Origin: Acidimicrobiia bacterium
Lineage (GTDB): Bacteria > Actinomycetota > Acidimicrobiia > Spongiisociales > UBA5794
Length of the DNA stretch: 64,000 nucleotides
Direction of reading: 5' to 3'
Assembly: GCA_036396535.1 (NCBI GenBank)
Contig: DASWKR010000047.1
Coordinates: 1-64,000 of the forward strand
Made by a program: the position numbers and the translations under genes. Of the stretch, positions 810 through 10,151 are shown piece by piece; within the stretch, counting starts at the first letter, position 1, and each line of letters starts with the position of its first letter. The notes beneath the pieces were generated by a model. The model was not told where the DNA came from. It did no database searches and saw only the letters and a program-made list of their open reading frames with translations.

Positions 810-1670
810 TCAATCGGCGCGCGCCGACTTGTACTTGCAGTCGTACTCGACGATCTTGCAGCGGCAGTTCGTCCACGGATCCCATCCGCCGCCTCCTCGA
901 TCCTCGCTCCACTCGTAGAGGAAGCGCGCCGAGGCCGTGGCCGCCACGGGGTGATATGGCGTCTCGCCTGCCCACCCCGCCCCGTCGCTCGCCCAGTCCC
1001 ACGTATCGGGGATGAACTGGAACAGCCCCTTGGGTCCGTGACCGTCCGGGTTGTACGCGAACGGGTCGCCATTGGATTCGCAGTCGACGATCGTGAGCGC
1101 GTTCGCCGTCTGCCCGATGTCGCCGAAGTACTCATCAACGAGGGCCTCCCACAGTTCCACCGGGCGGGGCCCTCTGTAGTCGAGCTCGCACCTCGACTCA
1201 TCCTCGGCGCGGCACACATCGCTCCACCGTGACCCGCCGGCGAAATCGACACCGCCCCTGCCGAAGATCCGATCATTCCCGCCCCCTCCGAACAGCGAAT
1301 CGTCTTGGCCACCGCCGTAGAGCCGGTCGTGACCATGGTTGCCGTGAACGGTGTCCGCGCCGGGCCCCCCATAGAGCACGTCCTTGCCTTGCCCTCCGTG
1401 AATATCGTCTCGCCCGGCGCCGCCGCAGATGAGGTCGTTGCCTCCGCGGCCCCGGATGACGTCGCGGCCGCCCTTGCCCACCACCACGTCACTGGCCGGG
1501 GTCCCTTCGATCAGGTCGTCGGCAGACGTGCCGACGATCGTGGCAACGACACCATGGCAGAGCTCGACCGCGGCGGACGCCACCCCGATCGGGGAGGCGC
1601 TGAGTGAGCCGATGAGGGCGAGCGAAGCCGCCAAGCGCACTGCTCCGCCGGCTGGGGGCTGACGAGCCAC
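810..1670 (-). CDS. Secreted RTX-repeat protein with lysozyme/transglycosylase-like domain
   Basis: This 286-residue protein is a complete paralogue of the preceding gene. It has a signal peptide (about 1-34), then a module opening with a Cys and GVVATIVGTSADD and ending in GGNDLICGG, then RTX nonapeptides to about residue 155. A linker containing two Cys precedes the catalytic-looking segment IVDCESNGDPFAYNPDG followed by GLFQFIPDTW, the conserved Glu/GLFQ pattern of SLT/Rpf-like muramidases. The C-terminus has three more Cys (NCRCK, YDCKYK), suggesting disulfides in an exported protein. The start is GTG at 1670 with a TACCCT box 7 nt upstream and no Shine-Dalgarno, consistent with a leaderless transcript. 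Likely role: calcium-dependent cell-wall remodelling. The substrate cannot be read from the sequence. Confidence 0.8.
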   Translation of the reverse strand: MARQPPAGGAVRLAASLALIGSLSASPIGVASAAVELCHGVVATIVGTSADDLIEGTPASDVVVGKGGRDVIRGRGGNDLICGGAGRDDIHGGQGKDVLYGGPGADTVHGNHGHDRLYGGGQDDSLFGGGGNDRIFGRGGVDFAGGSRWSDVCRAEDESRCELDYRGPRPVELWEALVDEYFGDIGQTANALTIVDCESNGDPFAYNPDGHGPKGLFQFIPDTWDWASDGAGWAGETPYHPVAATASARFLYEWSEDRGGGGWDPWTNCRCKIVEYDCKYKSARAD

Positions 1671-1713: not shown

Positions 1714-2841
1714 TCAGGCGGCGGTCCGTTCCGCCTGTTCGAGGACCCGGAGCACGTTGTCACCCAGGGTCATCCGGATCTCCTGCTCGGGCCATCCCCG
1801 GCGCAGCAGCTCCTCGGTGACGGCTGGGAAGCACGAGACGTCCTCGAGGCCGGTCGGCGTCGTTTCGATCCCGTCGAAGTCGCTACCGATCCCGACCGAG
1901 GCGACCCCTGCGACCTCGGCGATGTGCTCCAGGTGGTCGACGACGTGGCCGACCGTTCCCGGGTCGAGTTGCATCGCCGTCGCCCGTGCCGCGCTCGCAG
2001 CGGCAAAGCCGGCCTCGTCCTGCGGGTCGAACTCGGCGCGCAGCGCCCGCTCCGCCTCGAACATGTCGAGGGCGGATCGCGCCGTCGACGCCACGACGAA
2101 TGCCGGGCAGAACACGGCCATCACGACGCCTCCGGTCTCGCCGACTGCACGCAGCACGTCGTCCGGGACGTTGCGAGGGTGGTCCGTGACCGCTCGGGCG
2201 CCCGAATGAGAGGCGATCACAGGGACCACGCTGGCGTCGATGGCGTGTCGCATCGTGGCGGCCGACACGTGCGAGATGTCGACGAGCATCCCGAGGCGGT
2301 TCATCTCGCGGACGACCTCCCTGCCGAAGCCGGTCAACCCGCCGTTCGATTCGATGTCGGTTGCCGAGTCGGCCCACTCGATCGTGGAGCCGTGCGTGAG
2401 CGTCATGTAGCGCACCCCCGCTGCGGCGAGTGCTTCGAGCTTGTCGAGGGAGCCTTCTATGGCGTGCCCGCCTTCGGCGCCGATCAGGCTCGCCACCTTG
2501 CGCTCCTCCCGCGCCCTCATGACGTCTGCCGCGGTGGTCGCCGGCGTCAGCCTCCGAGGATCGGCGGCGACCATTGCCTGGACGAGCGAGACCTGCGCCA
2601 TGACCTCATCGAATGGGTCGGGACGCCAGGACGGGACATATACGGACCAGAACTGTCCGCCGACGCCGCCCTCGAGCAACCTGGCGGTGTCCGTGTGGTA
2701 TCCGGCGAGGTGCCGTCGAGGGTCCGCGACGTCGAGACTTCCGCCCGCTCTCACCCGTATCGCCCACGGCAGGTCGTTGTGCCCATCGACGACGGGGAGG
2801 CTGGCGTGGATGTGCTTCGCCTCGGCGGCGAAGTCGGTCAT
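1714..2841 (-). CDS. Membrane dipeptidase (renal-dipeptidase-like, peptidase family M19)
   Basis: This 375-residue protein belongs to the M19 dipeptidase/amidohydrolase superfamily, zinc enzymes that hydrolyse dipeptides (often D-containing) and related amides. Visible motifs are VVDGHNDLPW near the N-terminus (HxD metal ligands), EGGHAIEG (bridging Glu), YMTLTHGSTIEW, VDISHVS and IASHSGARAV (metal His), and IGSDFDGIE near the C-terminus. No signal peptide is seen, so it is probably cytoplasmic. The ATG at 2841 overlaps the stop of the upstream AhpD-like gene (ATGA), so the two are translationally coupled. An in-frame upstream extension exists but is Arg-rich shadow sequence. Why a dipeptidase is coupled to a peroxidase-like protein is not clear from the sequence. 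Confidence 0.9.
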   Translation of the reverse strand: MTDFAAEAKHIHASLPVVDGHNDLPWAIRVRAGGSLDVADPRRHLAGYHTDTARLLEGGVGGQFWSVYVPSWRPDPFDEVMAQVSLVQAMVAADPRRLTPATTAADVMRAREERKVASLIGAEGGHAIEGSLDKLEALAAAGVRYMTLTHGSTIEWADSATDIESNGGLTGFGREVVREMNRLGMLVDISHVSAATMRHAIDASVVPVIASHSGARAVTDHPRNVPDDVLRAVGETGGVVMAVFCPAFVVASTARSALDMFEAERALRAEFDPQDEAGFAAASAARATAMQLDPGTVGHVVDHLEHIAEVAGVASVGIGSDFDGIETTPTGLEDVSCFPAVTEELLRRGWPEQEIRMTLGDNVLRVLEQAERTAA

Positions 2842-3389
2842 CCTCCCGTTCCCCACGTCTCGAGTGTCACGCCGAGCCCGTCCGCCATCCGGTTGACGTA
2901 GGCGTAGTACGAGGTCACCTCGCAGATGTCGAGGATGTCGCGATCCCCGAATCCCTCTCGCCGCAGGTTCCCGATGTCGTCCTCGGTGACGGATGCCGGG
3001 GCGACCGTCAGCTTGACGGCATAGTCGAGCATGGCGCATCTCGCGGCGCTCAAGCCGGCTGTTCGCCAGTCGCTCTCGATGCGTCCGAGCAGGTCGTCGT
3101 CGCGGAGGAGGCGGCGCAGACCGCGCCGGTGATGGACGACTCAGTAGTGACAGTCGTTCACGGAGCTGACGACGAGGGCGATCAGCTCCCTCTCCACCTT
3201 GCGCAGGGTCTTCGTGCCTGCCATCGCCGACCGATAGAGAGCGTCGTGAGCCGCCATGGCTGCCGGGTTCAGGGAGTGGATCTGCATGATGTTATCGACG
3301 CGCCGCGCCTCCGGGTCCTCGACTCGACGGCGCATCTCGGCGAGATCGCCGGACCACTCGTCCTCACGGATCGTCTCGATCCAGGCCAC
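2838..3389 (-). CDS. AhpD-like peroxidase-related protein, predicted selenoprotein (UGA at codon 83 read as Sec)
   Basis: Read straight through the in-frame TGA at 3143-3141, this is one continuous 183-residue protein of the carboxymuconolactone decarboxylase/AhpD superfamily, peroxidase-related branch. The N-terminus AWIETIREDEW and the centre VVSSVNDCHY-U-VVHH match the family pattern NxCxYCxxHH, with Sec83 replacing the second Cys of CxxC and Cys80 kept. The half after the TGA (YAVKLTVAPASVTEDDI, then DILDICEVTSYYAYVNRMAD) is the conserved C-terminal helix region, so both halves are intact. The start is GTG at 3389 with GGAGGT 6 nt upstream. A SECIS-like hairpin follows the UGA. In AhpD the CxxC pair performs thiol-peroxide chemistry, and Sec would raise reactivity. 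The alternative is a simple nonsense pseudogene, which fits the SECIS poorly. selA, selB, selC and selD are not in this window. Confidence 0.86.
3096..3143 (-). promoter_or_regulatory. Bacterial SECIS element after the in-frame UGA
   Basis: Directly after the UGA (3143-3141) comes GTCGTC (3140-3135), which can pair with GACGAC (3101-3096). Inside lies a perfect 6-bp stem CGGCGC (3128-3123)/GCGCCG (3117-3112) closed by the 5-nt loop GGTCT (3122-3118). From memory, the apical GGUCU and its start 18 nt after the UGA match the Escherichia coli fdhF SECIS recognised by SelB. The element lies inside the coding sequence, as in bacteria generally. Confidence 0.82.
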
Positions 3390-3477
3390 GTTGCACCTCC
3401 GCTCCTTGCCGCGGCACGGCCGGACGGTACTGGCCTCGTCCAGGCGGCACCGGTCACCGATGTAGCCTCCCTGCCGA

Positions 3478-4902: not shown

Positions 4903-5598
4903 TCAGACCTGAGTGATGCAGTCCTCGTCTGCGGTGGCGTGCGGGGTGAGCACTGCGAGAGTGGTCTGGCGGGTGGCTCCGAGCAGCCCGCGCACGATGC
5001 CTTGGTCGAGCCGACAGACCACCTCGGGGTGGTTCGCCGCGGTGTCGCCGAACGGACAGAAGCGGCTGATGATCTGCCTGTCGTCGGTGTTGGCCTCCGC
5101 CTCGAAGCCGACGCCCATCATCGCTCTGGCGACGGCCTGCACGGCCTCGGTGAACCCGGCCTCCTCGGGTAGCCCGATCTCGGCGGCCAGCTCACGTCCA
5201 TATTCCCGGCCCACCTCCTCGGCGACGGCGGCGGCAGTGGTCGGGGAGAGGCGCTCGACGACTCGAACGAGCAACTCGGACAGCAGGTCGTATCGGCGGG
5301 CCGGGAACTGCAGCGACACCTCCTTCGAGGTGACTTCGTAGTGCTTGGCCGGGCGGCCGGCACCCGGTCCCTGCTTTCCAGAGCGCCTGCGGTGCGTCAC
5401 CTGCAGATACCCGTCGTCGACGAGTCGGTCGAGGTGGTGGCGCGCCACGTTCGTGTGGATGGCGAAGAGGGCCGCGATCTCTGATGCGGTGACGGACTCT
5501 GGGGCCTCGCGGACGGAGACGTAGATCCCGCGCCGGGTCGGATCGCCGAGCGAGGCGGCGAGGTCTCCGATCTGCTTGTCGAACAGACTCGTATCCAT
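4903..5598 (-). CDS. SufR-like winged-helix Fe-S-responsive transcriptional regulator
   Basis: This 231-residue protein has an N-terminal winged-helix DNA-binding domain (about 10-95; TASEIAALFAIHTNVARHHL is the recognition region, then the wing YLQVTHRRRSGKQGP). A C-terminal sensor domain carries three Cys: C181 in RFCPFGD, C195 in EVVCRL and C227 in DEDCI. This spacing resembles actinobacterial SufR proteins, where three Cys hold an Fe-S cluster and the holo form represses Fe-S assembly genes. It is divergent from mrp/apbC, an Fe-S carrier gene, with a 92-nt gap containing a perfect inverted repeat. That supports control of mrp and itself. A role at a suf operon elsewhere is possible but not shown. 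Confidence 0.78.
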   Translation of the reverse strand: MDTSLFDKQIGDLAASLGDPTRRGIYVSVREAPESVTASEIAALFAIHTNVARHHLDRLVDDGYLQVTHRRRSGKQGPGAGRPAKHYEVTSKEVSLQFPARRYDLLSELLVRVVERLSPTTAAAVAEEVGREYGRELAAEIGLPEEAGFTEAVQAVARAMMGVGFEAEANTDDRQIISRFCPFGDTAANHPEVVCRLDQGIVRGLLGATRQTTLAVLTPHATADEDCITQV

Positions 5599-5690: not shown

Positions 5691-6788
5691 TTGGTAGACG
5701 TCGCTGCGCTCAGGGCTGCCATCGGGGCAGTGGAGGATCCCGAGATCCATCGATCACTCGAAGAGCTGAACATGCTGCGCGATCTGCAGGTCGCCGACGA
5801 CGGTTCCGTCAGCGCCCTCGTCGCGCTGACCATCCCCGGCTGTCCCCTCAAGGACAAGCTGACCGCAGACGTGACCGCCGCAGCCATGGCGGTTCCGGGC
5901 GTCACCCGAGTCGACGTGGAGTTCACCCACATGACGGACGAGGAGCGAGCCGGCCTCGTCGAGCACGTCCGCGGCGCTCCGACCCGTGAGATCACCATCG
6001 GTAGGCCCGGCTCCAACACCAGGGTCATCGCCGTGTCGTCCGGCAAGGGCGGCGTCGGCAAGTCCTCGGTGACCGCCAACCTCGGGGTGGCGCTCGCCAG
6101 GCTCGGCAAGACGGTCGGCATCATCGACGCCGACGTCTGGGGGTTCTCGATTCCGAAGATGCTCGGCGCCGACCGCCAGCCGACCGTGATCGACGAGACG
6201 CTGCTGCCGCCCGAGATTCACGGCGTTCGCATCATGTCGATGGACTACTTCGTGCAGCCCGACCAGGCTGTCATCTGGCGCGGTCCGATGCTCCACAAGG
6301 CGCTCGAGCAGTTCCTCGCAGACGTCCACTGGGGGGACCCGGATTTCCTCCTCATCGACATGCCCCCGGGCACGGGCGACATCGCCATCTCGATGTCGCA
6401 GTTCCTGCCGCGGGCTCAGGCGATCGTTGTCACGACCCCTCAGATCACCGCGCAGCGTGTCGCCAAGCGGGCGGCCCTGATGGCCCGCAAGGTCAACCAG
6501 GAGGTCATCGGCGTCGTCGAGAACATGTCGTGGTTCACGGGCGACGACGGCAAGCGCTACGCGATCTTCGGCGAAGGCGGCGGTCAGTCTCTCGCCGACG
6601 AGCTCGAGGTGCCGCTACTCGGCCAGATCCCACTCGTGCCTGCGCTGCGTGAGGGTGCCGACCGCGGCCAGCCCGCGACGATCGCCGACCCGGGCGGAGA
6701 GGCGACGCTCGCTTTCCAGGACCTCGCCCACGAGGTCGAGGCCCGCAAACCTCGCCTGCGAAGCCACCCGGAGCTCATCGTCCGCTAG
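5691..6788 (+). CDS. mrp: Mrp/ApbC P-loop ATPase, iron-sulfur cluster carrier
   Basis: This 365-residue protein has an N-terminal MIP18/DUF59 domain (about 1-90, with AIGAVEDPEIHRSLEELNM). The Mrp/NBP35 P-loop domain follows, with the deviant Walker A SSGKGGVGKSSVTANL, DADVWGFSIPKMLG, DMPPGTGDIAISMSQ and ENMSWFTGDDG. The CxxC seen after ENMS in many ApbC proteins is absent; as I recall, this is common in actinobacterial Mrp. It should carry and deliver Fe-S clusters in the cytoplasm using ATP. The TTG at 5691 has AGGAG 8 nt upstream. An ATG at 5683 is out of frame and stops at once. It is divergent from the SufR-like regulator, which probably controls it. Confidence 0.9.
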   Translation: MVDVAALRAAIGAVEDPEIHRSLEELNMLRDLQVADDGSVSALVALTIPGCPLKDKLTADVTAAAMAVPGVTRVDVEFTHMTDEERAGLVEHVRGAPTREITIGRPGSNTRVIAVSSGKGGVGKSSVTANLGVALARLGKTVGIIDADVWGFSIPKMLGADRQPTVIDETLLPPEIHGVRIMSMDYFVQPDQAVIWRGPMLHKALEQFLADVHWGDPDFLLIDMPPGTGDIAISMSQFLPRAQAIVVTTPQITAQRVAKRAALMARKVNQEVIGVVENMSWFTGDDGKRYAIFGEGGGQSLADELEVPLLGQIPLVPALREGADRGQPATIADPGGEATLAFQDLAHEVEARKPRLRSHPELIVR

Positions 6789-7290: not shown

Positions 7291-8559
7291 CTACTCGCAG
7301 TTCACGACGACCTCGCCGTTGAGGCAGCTGTCGGTGTCTTTGCCGCCGTAGAGGGTGTCCGTGCCCGGTCCCCCGTCGAGGGTGTCGTCGCCCCGGTTCC
7401 CCTTGAGGAGATCGTTCCCGCCGTTGCCCATGATGGTGTCGTCGCCACCCTCACCTCGGAGCACGTCGTTGCCGTCGCTGCCGATCAGGATGTCGCCCGA
7501 GCTCGAGCCGATGAATACCTCGAACCCGCTGAACGTTGCGGTGACATCTCCCGTCACGCTGCCCGCGGCGACGTCGATGGTGGATGCCGCCCGCACGAAG
7601 AGGCGATCCTTGTCGGCACCACCTGCCACGACGTGGCCGTTGCCCTCGATGACGACCTCATCGCGGCCGGGGCCCGCCATGAGCTCGTCGGGCTCGTCCT
7701 GCTGGCAGCAGTTGCTGAGTACGTCCCGGCCGGTTCCCCCATTCAGATGGTCGCTCCCGATTCCGTCGAGGATGGTGTCGGCACCTGGCCCGCCATCGAC
7801 CGTATCGTTGCCCTCCTCGCCCCACATGCGGTCGTGGCCCGAACCACCGAGCATCGTGTCAGCGCCAGTGCCCCCGCGCATGTAGTCGTGCCCGAGCCCA
7901 CCGATGAGCGTGTCCGAGCCCGCCTCGCCTTCGATTCGGTCCCCGGCGCCGCGGCCATCCAGGAAATCGTCGCCGCTCATGCCGACGATGAGGTTCGGCG
8001 CCGCATTCCCGGTGACGTGATCGTCGAATGGCGATCCGTATACGTTTCGTATGGAGTGGATCGTGTCGCTTCCATCACCGGTTGCGGTCCCGGCGGTGAG
8101 ATCGACCACGAGAGGTCCGGCGGCATCCCGGTAGTCGAGGTTGTCGGGCTGGGAGCCCCCGAACAAGTCATCGTTGCCGGGGCCGCCGGTGATCCAATCG
8201 TTGCCCGCTCCGCCGTGGATCTGGTCGGGTCCTGGTCCTCCGTCGAGCTTGTCTCCTCCGCGGTTGCCGAAGATGATGTCGTTTCCGGGCCCGCCGTCGA
8301 TCGTGTCGTTCTGTCCGTTACCGCAGATGAGGTCGTTGCCGCCGAGCCCGCTGATGGTGTCCGGGCCTCCGAGGCCGACGATGACGTCGTCGCCGGGGGT
8401 CCCGTCGAGCATGTCCGGGCCGTCCGTGCCGACGATGGTGGCTTCGAGGCCGCCGCAGGTCGGAAGGGCCTGCGCCACCGCAGGCGAAGCTGCCACGAAG
8501 CCGGCGACCGCGGTGAGGACGAGGAAGAGGACGGATGAGGATCGAGTTCGTGTGAGCAT
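7291..8559 (-). CDS. Secreted RTX (haemolysin-type calcium-binding) repeat protein
   Basis: This 422-residue protein has a Sec signal peptide (about 1-31, ending AVAQA). An entry module opens with Cys (LPTCGGLEATIVGTDGPD) and closes with GLGGNDLICG. Two blocks of RTX nonapeptides follow (about 45-130 and 185-270), separated by the beta-type linker YRDAAGPLVVDLTAGTATG that is usual between RTX blocks. A third block near 355-405 leads to the Cys-containing end DSCLNGEVVVNCE. No catalytic motif is visible. RTX blocks fold on calcium binding outside the cell. No type I secretion gene is nearby and the signal peptide indicates Sec export. It is a close paralogue of the gene at 8828-10042. Function unknown; adhesive or matrix protein is a guess. 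Confidence 0.85.
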   Translation of the reverse strand: MLTRTRSSSVLFLVLTAVAGFVAASPAVAQALPTCGGLEATIVGTDGPDMLDGTPGDDVIVGLGGPDTISGLGGNDLICGNGQNDTIDGGPGNDIIFGNRGGDKLDGGPGPDQIHGGAGNDWITGGPGNDDLFGGSQPDNLDYRDAAGPLVVDLTAGTATGDGSDTIHSIRNVYGSPFDDHVTGNAAPNLIVGMSGDDFLDGRGAGDRIEGEAGSDTLIGGLGHDYMRGGTGADTMLGGSGHDRMWGEEGNDTVDGGPGADTILDGIGSDHLNGGTGRDVLSNCCQQDEPDELMAGPGRDEVVIEGNGHVVAGGADKDRLFVRAASTIDVAAGSVTGDVTATFSGFEVFIGSSSGDILIGSDGNDVLRGEGGDDTIMGNGGNDLLKGNRGDDTLDGGPGTDTLYGGKDTDSCLNGEVVVNCE

Positions 8560-8827: not shown

Positions 8828-10042
8828 CTACTCGCAGTTCACGACGACCTCGCCGTTGACGCAGCTGTCGGAGCCGTCCCCGCCGTCGAGGTCGTCGAAC
8901 CCGGCTCCGCCGTCCAGCGCGTCCATCCCCTCGTCGCCAAGTAGCCGATCGTCGCCGCTCTTGCCGAGGATCACGTCGTTTCCCTTGCCGCCGCGCAGGT
9001 CGTTGTCCTCGCCATCGCCGATGATGGTGTCGTCCTCGCGCGATCCCCTGTAGACCTCGAAACCGGAGAACGTACCAACCGCAGCGTCCCGCGTGACGGT
9101 GCCTGCCGCGACGTCCAGGGTGGCGGCCACCACGAGATGCAAGTGGTCGCGACCGGCACCGCCGACGGCGTCGAGCACACCCTGGACGAACACGCGATCG
9201 GGACCGGGTCCGCCAAAGAGCAAGTCGGAGTCGTCGGCGTCCGTGCAGCCTTCGAGCGGACAGTGGTACAGCCTGTCCCGGCCGAGACCGCCGTGGATCT
9301 GATCGCTCCCTTGCTCGGCGTAGATGTGGTCGGGGGCCTTCTCGCCGTAGAGCACGTCATCGCCCTCGCCGCCGAAGATGACATCGCGACCATCCCCGCC
9401 GTGGATCACGTCGGCCCCGTCGCCACCGCCGAGGAGATCACGGCCACCACCACCGTGGATCTCGTCGTCACCTCCGTTGCCGAGAAGAGAGTTCGCGACT
9501 TCGTTGCCGACCATCAAGTCATTGAACGTCGATCCATTGATGACGCGGATCGAGGTGAGTTGATCGACGCCTTCCCCGGTCACGACGCCGATCGTCATAT
9601 CGACTGAGATCGGCCCCGCCGCCTCGCTGTATAGGGCGAAGTCGTAGCCGGTTCCGCCTTTGATGTCGTCGTTGCCGGGTCCTCCCCTGAACTTATCGGA
9701 GTCCCCGCCGCCGTGGAGGTCGTCGTTGCCGGCGTCACCGGAAAGGGTGTCGCCGCCGCGCCCACCGTAGATCGCATCGTTCCCGCCGCCGCCGCTGATG
9801 GTGTCGTACCCGGCGCCTCCACAGATGACGTCGTCACCGCCAAGCCCGCTGATGGTGTCCCACCCACCGAGCCCGACGATCACGTCGCCTCCGGACGTCC
9901 CAACGATGACGTCGCCTCCGGGGGTACCGACGATCGTTGCCTCGACGCCCTTGCACGTCTCGACCTGCGGGAGCGCGACTCCGGCCATGGTCGAGGAGAA
10001 GAGAAGGGCGGCGATCCCGATCAAGATCCAGCGCCTCGACAT
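8828..10042 (-). CDS. Secreted RTX (haemolysin-type calcium-binding) repeat protein, paralogue of the gene at 7291-8559
   Basis: This 404-residue protein begins MSRRWILIGIAALLFSSTMA, a clear signal peptide. It then has the same Cys-bracketed module as its paralogue (ETCKGVEATIVGTPGG to GLGGDDVICGG), RTX nonapeptides, the linker YSEAAGPISVDMTIG, a second RTX block, and the terminal DSCVNGEVVVNCE. A central insert has two Cys (HCPLEGCTDADDSD). The start at 10042 has AGAGGTGA just upstream; an in-frame start 19 codons earlier gives an Arg-rich tail and is rejected. No enzymatic domain is seen. Probably a calcium-folded exported or surface protein of unknown role. Confidence 0.85.
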   Translation of the reverse strand: MSRRWILIGIAALLFSSTMAGVALPQVETCKGVEATIVGTPGGDVIVGTSGGDVIVGLGGWDTISGLGGDDVICGGAGYDTISGGGGNDAIYGGRGGDTLSGDAGNDDLHGGGDSDKFRGGPGNDDIKGGTGYDFALYSEAAGPISVDMTIGVVTGEGVDQLTSIRVINGSTFNDLMVGNEVANSLLGNGGDDEIHGGGGRDLLGGGDGADVIHGGDGRDVIFGGEGDDVLYGEKAPDHIYAEQGSDQIHGGLGRDRLYHCPLEGCTDADDSDLLFGGPGPDRVFVQGVLDAVGGAGRDHLHLVVAATLDVAAGTVTRDAAVGTFSGFEVYRGSREDDTIIGDGEDNDLRGGKGNDVILGKSGDDRLLGDEGMDALDGGAGFDDLDGGDGSDSCVNGEVVVNCE

Positions 10043-10151
10043 ACCGTCACCTCTCTTCGAGATTCTCATCCCATGTCTGCGGCTCGTCACCCGCGCCAAC
10101 GCCGGCTGGCTCGTCGCGGGGTCACCGACAAGCGTACGCCTTCGAGAAGAA

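What the first reader, a model, noticed from the sequence alone, without database searches (positions are those of the whole stretch)
2838..3389. Predicted selenoprotein: AhpD-like CxxU protein in an operon with a dipeptidase
Seen: one frame runs from a GTG with a strong GGAGGT site through a single in-frame TGA to the end of a complete peroxidase-related (AhpD/CMD superfamily) protein. The TGA falls exactly where homologues have the second Cys of NxCxYCxxHH, giving NDCHY-U-VVHH, and both halves are intact. The following gene is coupled by ATGA. Known: Sec often replaces redox Cys in CxxC proteins, and Sec-containing AhpD-like proteins have been predicted before. Inferred: this organism decodes UGA as Sec here. 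The M19-dipeptidase partnership is, to my knowledge, undescribed.
Basis: partly seen in the sequence, partly recalled or inferred. Interest (0 to 1): 0.93.

Follow-up and report, generated by a model that had tools for sequence, protein, structure and literature searches.

The report
Selenocysteine AhpD-like redox protein gene
A bacterium of the class Acidimicrobiia reads an internal "stop" codon in this small antioxidant-type gene as selenocysteine, the rare 21st amino acid; the gene is real and conserved in dozens of relatives, but it belongs to a selenoprotein family that is already catalogued.

Summary
In detail: on the minus strand, 3389→2838, a TIGR01926 (peroxidase-related, AhpD/CMD superfamily) gene has one in-frame TGA (3141-3143) where homologues carry the second Cys of CxxC; its stop overlaps the ATG of an M19 dipeptidase gene (ATGA). 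The selenocysteine reading is strongly supported by three lines of evidence. (1) The same genome encodes SelA, SelB, SelD (itself with Sec) and tRNA-Sec(UCA). (2) In a 51-member clade from many genera, 50 keep TGA at this codon (one has TTA). (3) A hairpin with a GGUCU loop starts 12 nt after the UGA and is under selection at synonymous sites: 53/53 sequences keep pair 18-30 through G-C, C-G, A-U, U-A and G-U forms. The protein is a new member of the known CxxU 'AhpD-like' selenoprotein family (Sargasso Sea 2005; TIGR01926 entry in a 2026 review). The dipeptidase link is real but restricted to one taxonomic family (13 genomes). The more conserved partner is an upstream winged-helix regulator with SufR-like cysteines (24 genomes), between mrp (Fe-S carrier) and often acnA (aconitase). 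A second, distinct Sec AhpD-like gene lies elsewhere in the genome. Biochemical function is inferred, not shown.

The parts
2838..3389 (-). Sec-containing AhpD-like (TIGR01926) gene, GTG start, 183 residues with U83
   Evidence: TIGR01926 135.9 bits, cut-off 81.8; CMD PF02627; PDB 2pfx, E 3e-29
3141..3143 (-). UGA codon for selenocysteine, residue 83 (second position of CxxC, C80-H-Y-U83)
3112..3128 (-). SECIS hairpin core CGGCGC-GGUCU-GCGCCG, stem starting 12 nt and apical loop 18 nt after the UGA
   Evidence: invariant synonymous codons and compensatory synonymous changes
3395..3400 (-). Shine-Dalgarno-like GGAGGT upstream of the GTG start
   Evidence: sequence
1714..2841 (-). M19 (renal/membrane dipeptidase family) gene, start overlaps the selenoprotein stop by ATGA
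   Evidence: (PF01244 E 2.5e-105)
4903..5598 (-). HTH_20 regulator with SufR-like C-terminal cysteines; in most relatives of the family it lies upstream of the selenoprotein gene, often directly; here three genes intervene
5691..6788 (+). Mrp/ApbC-type Fe-S carrier gene, divergent from the HTH gene; conserved flank of the locus

Best explanation
The gene encodes a selenoprotein. SelB with Sec-tRNA(UCA) reads the UGA at 3141-3143 as selenocysteine, directed by the hairpin 13-29 nt downstream of the codon (supported by comparative evidence, not by protein data). The product is an all-helical AhpD-like thiol/selenol oxidoreductase: Cys80 and Sec83 form the redox pair, with Glu68, Tyr82 and His87 in the proton-relay positions known from AhpD (positions tested here; chemistry inferred). 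Sec83 occupies the position of Cys133 of M. tuberculosis AhpD. It is most likely a peroxide or disulfide reductase that cycles through a selenenylsulfide (inferred). In this bacterial family it sits in a locus flanked by mrp and often acnA, usually after a regulator with Fe-S-sensor-like cysteines, so it probably protects or reports on Fe-S/oxidative status (inferred, weak). The translationally coupled M19 dipeptidase is a lineage-specific addition whose functional link is unknown; turnover of a thiol-containing dipeptide is a guess. The confidence below is for the selenoprotein and AhpD-type redox identity, not for the Fe-S or dipeptidase links.
For: Sec machinery: SelA 418 bits, SelB 293.6 bits, 327.8 with the rest of its frame, its gene next to selA, SelD 393.5 bits with its own Sec in HGAGUACK, tRNA-Sec 72.7 bits against a gathering score of 47, anticodon UCA. 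TGA conserved in 50 of 51 rows of a clade with SH-aLRT 98 and in two further families of the phylum. SECIS: 53 distinct sequences, 97% of stem cells paired against 18-58% for slid registers; pair 18-30, third positions of two Arg codons, paired in 53/53 with five pair types, 0 of 100000 shuffles as good; pair 21-27 keeps U-A with CGT/CTA in one sequence; loop GGUCU 51, GGGCU 2. Codons CGC-GGT-CTG nearly invariant against 33%, 22% and 33% elsewhere in the same genes. Active-site residues E68, C80, Y82, H87 invariant; the five-residue relay is described in PMC3141380. selA found in 83 of 99 relatives.
Against: No protein or labelling data. The thermodynamic z-score of the hairpin alone is about zero, not unexpected for a short hairpin in GC-rich DNA, so the case rests on covariation. 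Shuffle counts ignore relatedness of the sequences. One orthologue (G028, L032/L087) has TTA at the site with the hairpin intact. The Fe-S/regulator link is synteny in one family only and could be inherited gene order.
Confidence: 0.93

Rival explanations
1. The TGA is a true stop: the gene is a recent pseudogene or the TGA is a sequencing/assembly error, and the ATGA-coupled dipeptidase is simply downstream.
For: The window comes from a draft genome in 94 contigs; TGA is also the normal stop of this gene.
Against: Independent genomes share TGA at this exact codon while the protein on both sides is conserved; the downstream hairpin evolves with compensatory synonymous changes.
Confidence: 0.02
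2. The UGA is read through by another route (TGA reassigned to an ordinary amino acid in this lineage, or nonsense suppression) rather than as selenocysteine.
For: The reading frame is open if TGA is a sense codon.
Against: TGA still ends this gene; complete selA, selB, selC and selD are present; the position is a redox Cys in homologues and the SECIS hairpin is conserved.
Confidence: 0.02
3. The selenoprotein and the M19 dipeptidase form a dedicated functional pair, for example a pathway that handles a thiol- or selenol-containing dipeptide, and the coupling in the window is the core of the system. (Not exclusive of the best explanation.)
For: Close coupling in 13 genomes of five genera; M19 metal-ligand motifs (HND, E, H, H) look intact by eye in the translation.
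Against: At least 11 orthologues in the same family, and all examined outside it, lack M19; the HTH gene is the more frequent neighbour.
Confidence: 0.15

Closest known systems
AhpD-like selenoprotein, CxxU, TIGR01926 (Sargasso Sea PMC1088965; GOS AhpD-like 1/2 PMC2398784; listed in PMC13188914)
   Same: Same family model (TIGR01926 in the 2026 review), same CxxU motif with Sec as the second residue, bacterial SECIS just downstream
   Different: This clade is fixed for Sec in the sample (no Cys member found), has HH after the motif, and has a regulator or M19 gene context not found in the parts of those papers that were read
M. tuberculosis AhpD (Cys130/Cys133)
   Same: CxxC helical hairpin and the Glu, Cys, Cys, His relay positions
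   Different: Sec in place of Cys133, Tyr in place of His132; only 21.5 bits against the AhpD model TIGR00777 (cut-off 191.95), so not AhpD proper
NF041238 AhpD_rel_CFYUT (seleno)protein
   Same: Related AhpD-type Sec protein family, 44.4 bits
   Different: Far below that family's cut-off of 175 bits
SufR (TIGR02702) for the upstream HTH gene
   Same: Winged-helix domain and C-terminal cysteines; the relative in L080 matches at 26 bits
   Different: Far below the cut-off of 178.8 bits; the window's own protein gives no TIGR02702 match; not a member

Membership tests
TIGR01926 peroxidase-related enzyme | score above curated cut-off (81.8 bits), near full-length | tested here: met
   135.9 bits, residues 3-174 on positions 2-173 of 178
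AhpD-like CxxU selenoprotein | in-frame TGA at a site where homologues have Cys | tested here: met
   19 Cys homologues have TGC/TGT at the site aligned to residue 83; TGA here
AhpD-like CxxU selenoprotein | bacterial SECIS hairpin just after the UGA, G in a small apical loop | tested here: met
   loop GGUCU 18 nt after UGA, covarying stem; criterion from PMC1088965
AhpD-like CxxU selenoprotein | Sec synthesis and decoding genes in the genome | tested here: met
AhpD-like CxxU selenoprotein | selenium in the purified protein | not testable with these tools
   needs 75Se labelling or mass spectrometry
AhpD-type redox active site | Glu, Cys, Cys/Sec, His relay residues | tested here: met
   E68, C80, H87 invariant in 51 rows; residue 83 is TGA in 50 and Leu in one (roles from PMC3141380)
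AhpD-type redox active site | peroxidase or disulfide reductase activity | not testable with these tools
   needs enzyme assay
AhpD proper (TIGR00777) | score above curated cut-off (191.95 bits) | tested here: not met
   21.5 bits
Peptidase M19 | Pfam PF01244 above gathering score | tested here: met
   352.6 bits, cut-off 26
SufR (TIGR02702), for the HTH gene | score above curated cut-off | tested here: not met
   26 of 178.8 bits in L080, no match for the window protein

The most novel reading that the evidence does not exclude
A Sec-only AhpD-like subfamily of Actinomycetota that works as the redox partner or effector of a cysteine-bearing (possibly Fe-S-sensing) HTH regulator beside mrp and aconitase, with a coupled M19 dipeptidase added in one lineage to process a thiol or selenol dipeptide: a selenium-dependent arm of Fe-S or thiol homeostasis that has not been described.
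Probability: 0.2. Interest if true: 0.6.

Novelty: new member of a known kind. Interest (0 to 1): 0.4.

Why it matters
It confirms, with strong comparative evidence, selenocysteine use in Acidimicrobiia, a group for which the searched papers hold almost nothing on selenoproteins, and shows that a gene caller that treats every TGA as a stop would cut this protein at residue 82. The clade appears fixed for Sec, which is useful for asking when Sec cannot go back to Cys. The neighbourhood gives testable ideas on what the uncharacterised peroxidase-related family does.

Tried and rejected
Pseudogene or sequencing error: rejected by conservation. Reassigned TGA: rejected, since TGA ends this gene and the Sec genes are complete. 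Thermodynamic z-score as SECIS evidence: uninformative, replaced by covariation. M19 as the main conserved partner: rejected, as the HTH gene is more widespread within the family. Other Sec genes in the window: a scan for TGA codons with coding-like sequence on both sides gave six others, which by eye look like ordinary gene ends followed by in-frame sequence; none shows a CxxU-type context (not tested by homology). Translations made on the wrong strand or frame were discarded. The simple gene calls contain shadow ORFs; the neighbour counts rest on tblastn instead. One deep-learning selenoprotein paper was checked for AhpD or Actinobacteria and had nothing. No structure prediction was run: the fold is clear from the sequence match to 2pfx.

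Full report
Observation. On the minus strand the frame starts at a GTG (3389) behind GGAGGT and runs to the TGA at 2840-2838, with one internal TGA at 3143-3141, codon 83. The motif is NDCHY-U-VVHH. The gene's stop shares ATGA with the start of an M19 dipeptidase gene, 1714-2841 (-). The protein scores 135.9 bits against TIGR01926 (cut-off 81.8) and matches PDB 2pfx at E 3e-29.

Selenocysteine machinery. The window lies in a 3.13 Mb, 96% complete draft genome. Titles of near relatives place it in Acidimicrobiia (inference). That genome has SelA (418 bits), SelB encoded beside it, SelD whose own TGA sits in HGAGUACK, the usual Sec site of SelD (the usual site is from my own knowledge), and tRNA-Sec with anticodon UCA. 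selA is found in 83 of 99 relatives.

Conservation. Among 99 relatives, full-length orthologues at 55-73% identity have exactly one TGA each, with one exception. In a tree of 88 proteins the window's clade of 51 (SH-aLRT 98) has 50 TGA and one TTA; Cys homologues and a second Sec group fall outside it. In a sample of 346 genomes of the phylum, two further families carry it, again with TGA. E68, C80, Y82, H86 and H87 are invariant. The E, C, C and H positions are the relay residues of AhpD (PMC3141380), with Sec here in the place of Cys133.

SECIS. Counting the UGA as 1-3, positions 16-21 pair with 27-32 around the loop GGUCU (22-26). In 53 distinct sequences 97% of the stem cells pair, against 18-58% when the 3' arm is slid by 1-3 nt. 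Pair 18-30 joins third positions of two Arg codons and is kept in all 53 through GC 37, CG 11, AU 2, GU 2, UA 1; none of 100000 shuffles does as well (the shuffle ignores relatedness). The codons CGC-GGT-CTG under the hairpin are nearly invariant, against 33%, 22% and 33% in the rest of the same genes. The folding z-score is near zero, so the argument is covariation and synonymous constraint, not stability.

Neighbourhood. In the same taxonomic family the order is mrp (-), HTH (+), selenoprotein (+), sometimes M19 (+), and in many acnA (-), written in the direction of the selenoprotein. The HTH gene is found upstream of 24 orthologues, with a gap of -1 to 66 nt in 14 of them. In the window three genes (a maleylpyruvate-isomerase-type protein, a DUF7218 protein and a DUF4259 protein) lie between them. 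M19 follows directly in 13 genomes, and is absent in at least 11 of the family with enough sequence downstream and in all examined outside it. The HTH protein has one invariant Cys (24 of 24) and two further ones in 17 and 16 of 24; it is not a member of TIGR02702 SufR. Fe-S or redox regulation is therefore a hypothesis.

Known or new. AhpD-like CxxU selenoproteins were predicted in the Sargasso Sea and GOS sets, and the 2026 review lists an AhpD-like TIGR01926 CxxU entry. This is a new member of that kind. No paper in the searched library holds AhpD, dipeptidase and selenoprotein together; most subscription papers are not held, so absence there is weak evidence of novelty.

Confidence. Selenoprotein: about 0.97 (SECIS, machinery and conservation). 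Redox enzyme of AhpD type: about 0.85 by homology. Specific substrate, regulator link and dipeptidase link: unproven; I put a dedicated M19 partnership at 0.15 and the regulator/Fe-S module at about 0.2-0.3.

Noticed in passing
G000:C72:52600-53058 (L070): A second Sec AhpD-like gene in the same genome, about 41% identical, with a different SECIS-like hairpin (GACCUC-AGGUUG-GAGGUC); relatives keep TGA and the stem, with a compensated form (GAUCUC/GAGAUC) in L123.
   Followed up: partly
L087 (G028:C116), same gene as L032: The one orthologue without TGA has TTA (Leu) while the SECIS hairpin is intact; no selA was found in that genome, which is only 79% complete. Either a recent mutation, perhaps after loss of Sec, or an assembly error.
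   Followed up: partly
   Followed up: partly
L010 reverse strand (G000:C35:175508-176434): SelD of this genome is itself a selenoprotein (HGAGUACK).
   Followed up: yes
L128 (G097:C21): A further Sec AhpD-like sequence that falls among Cys homologues in the tree, with another possible hairpin (GGAGCC...GGCUCC): possibly a separate gain of Sec; long branch, place unsure.
   Followed up: no
window 810-1670, 7291-8559, 8828-10099 (-): Several predicted proteins rich in GGxGxD-type repeats (RTX/calcium-binding repeat look) lie near the locus.
   Followed up: no
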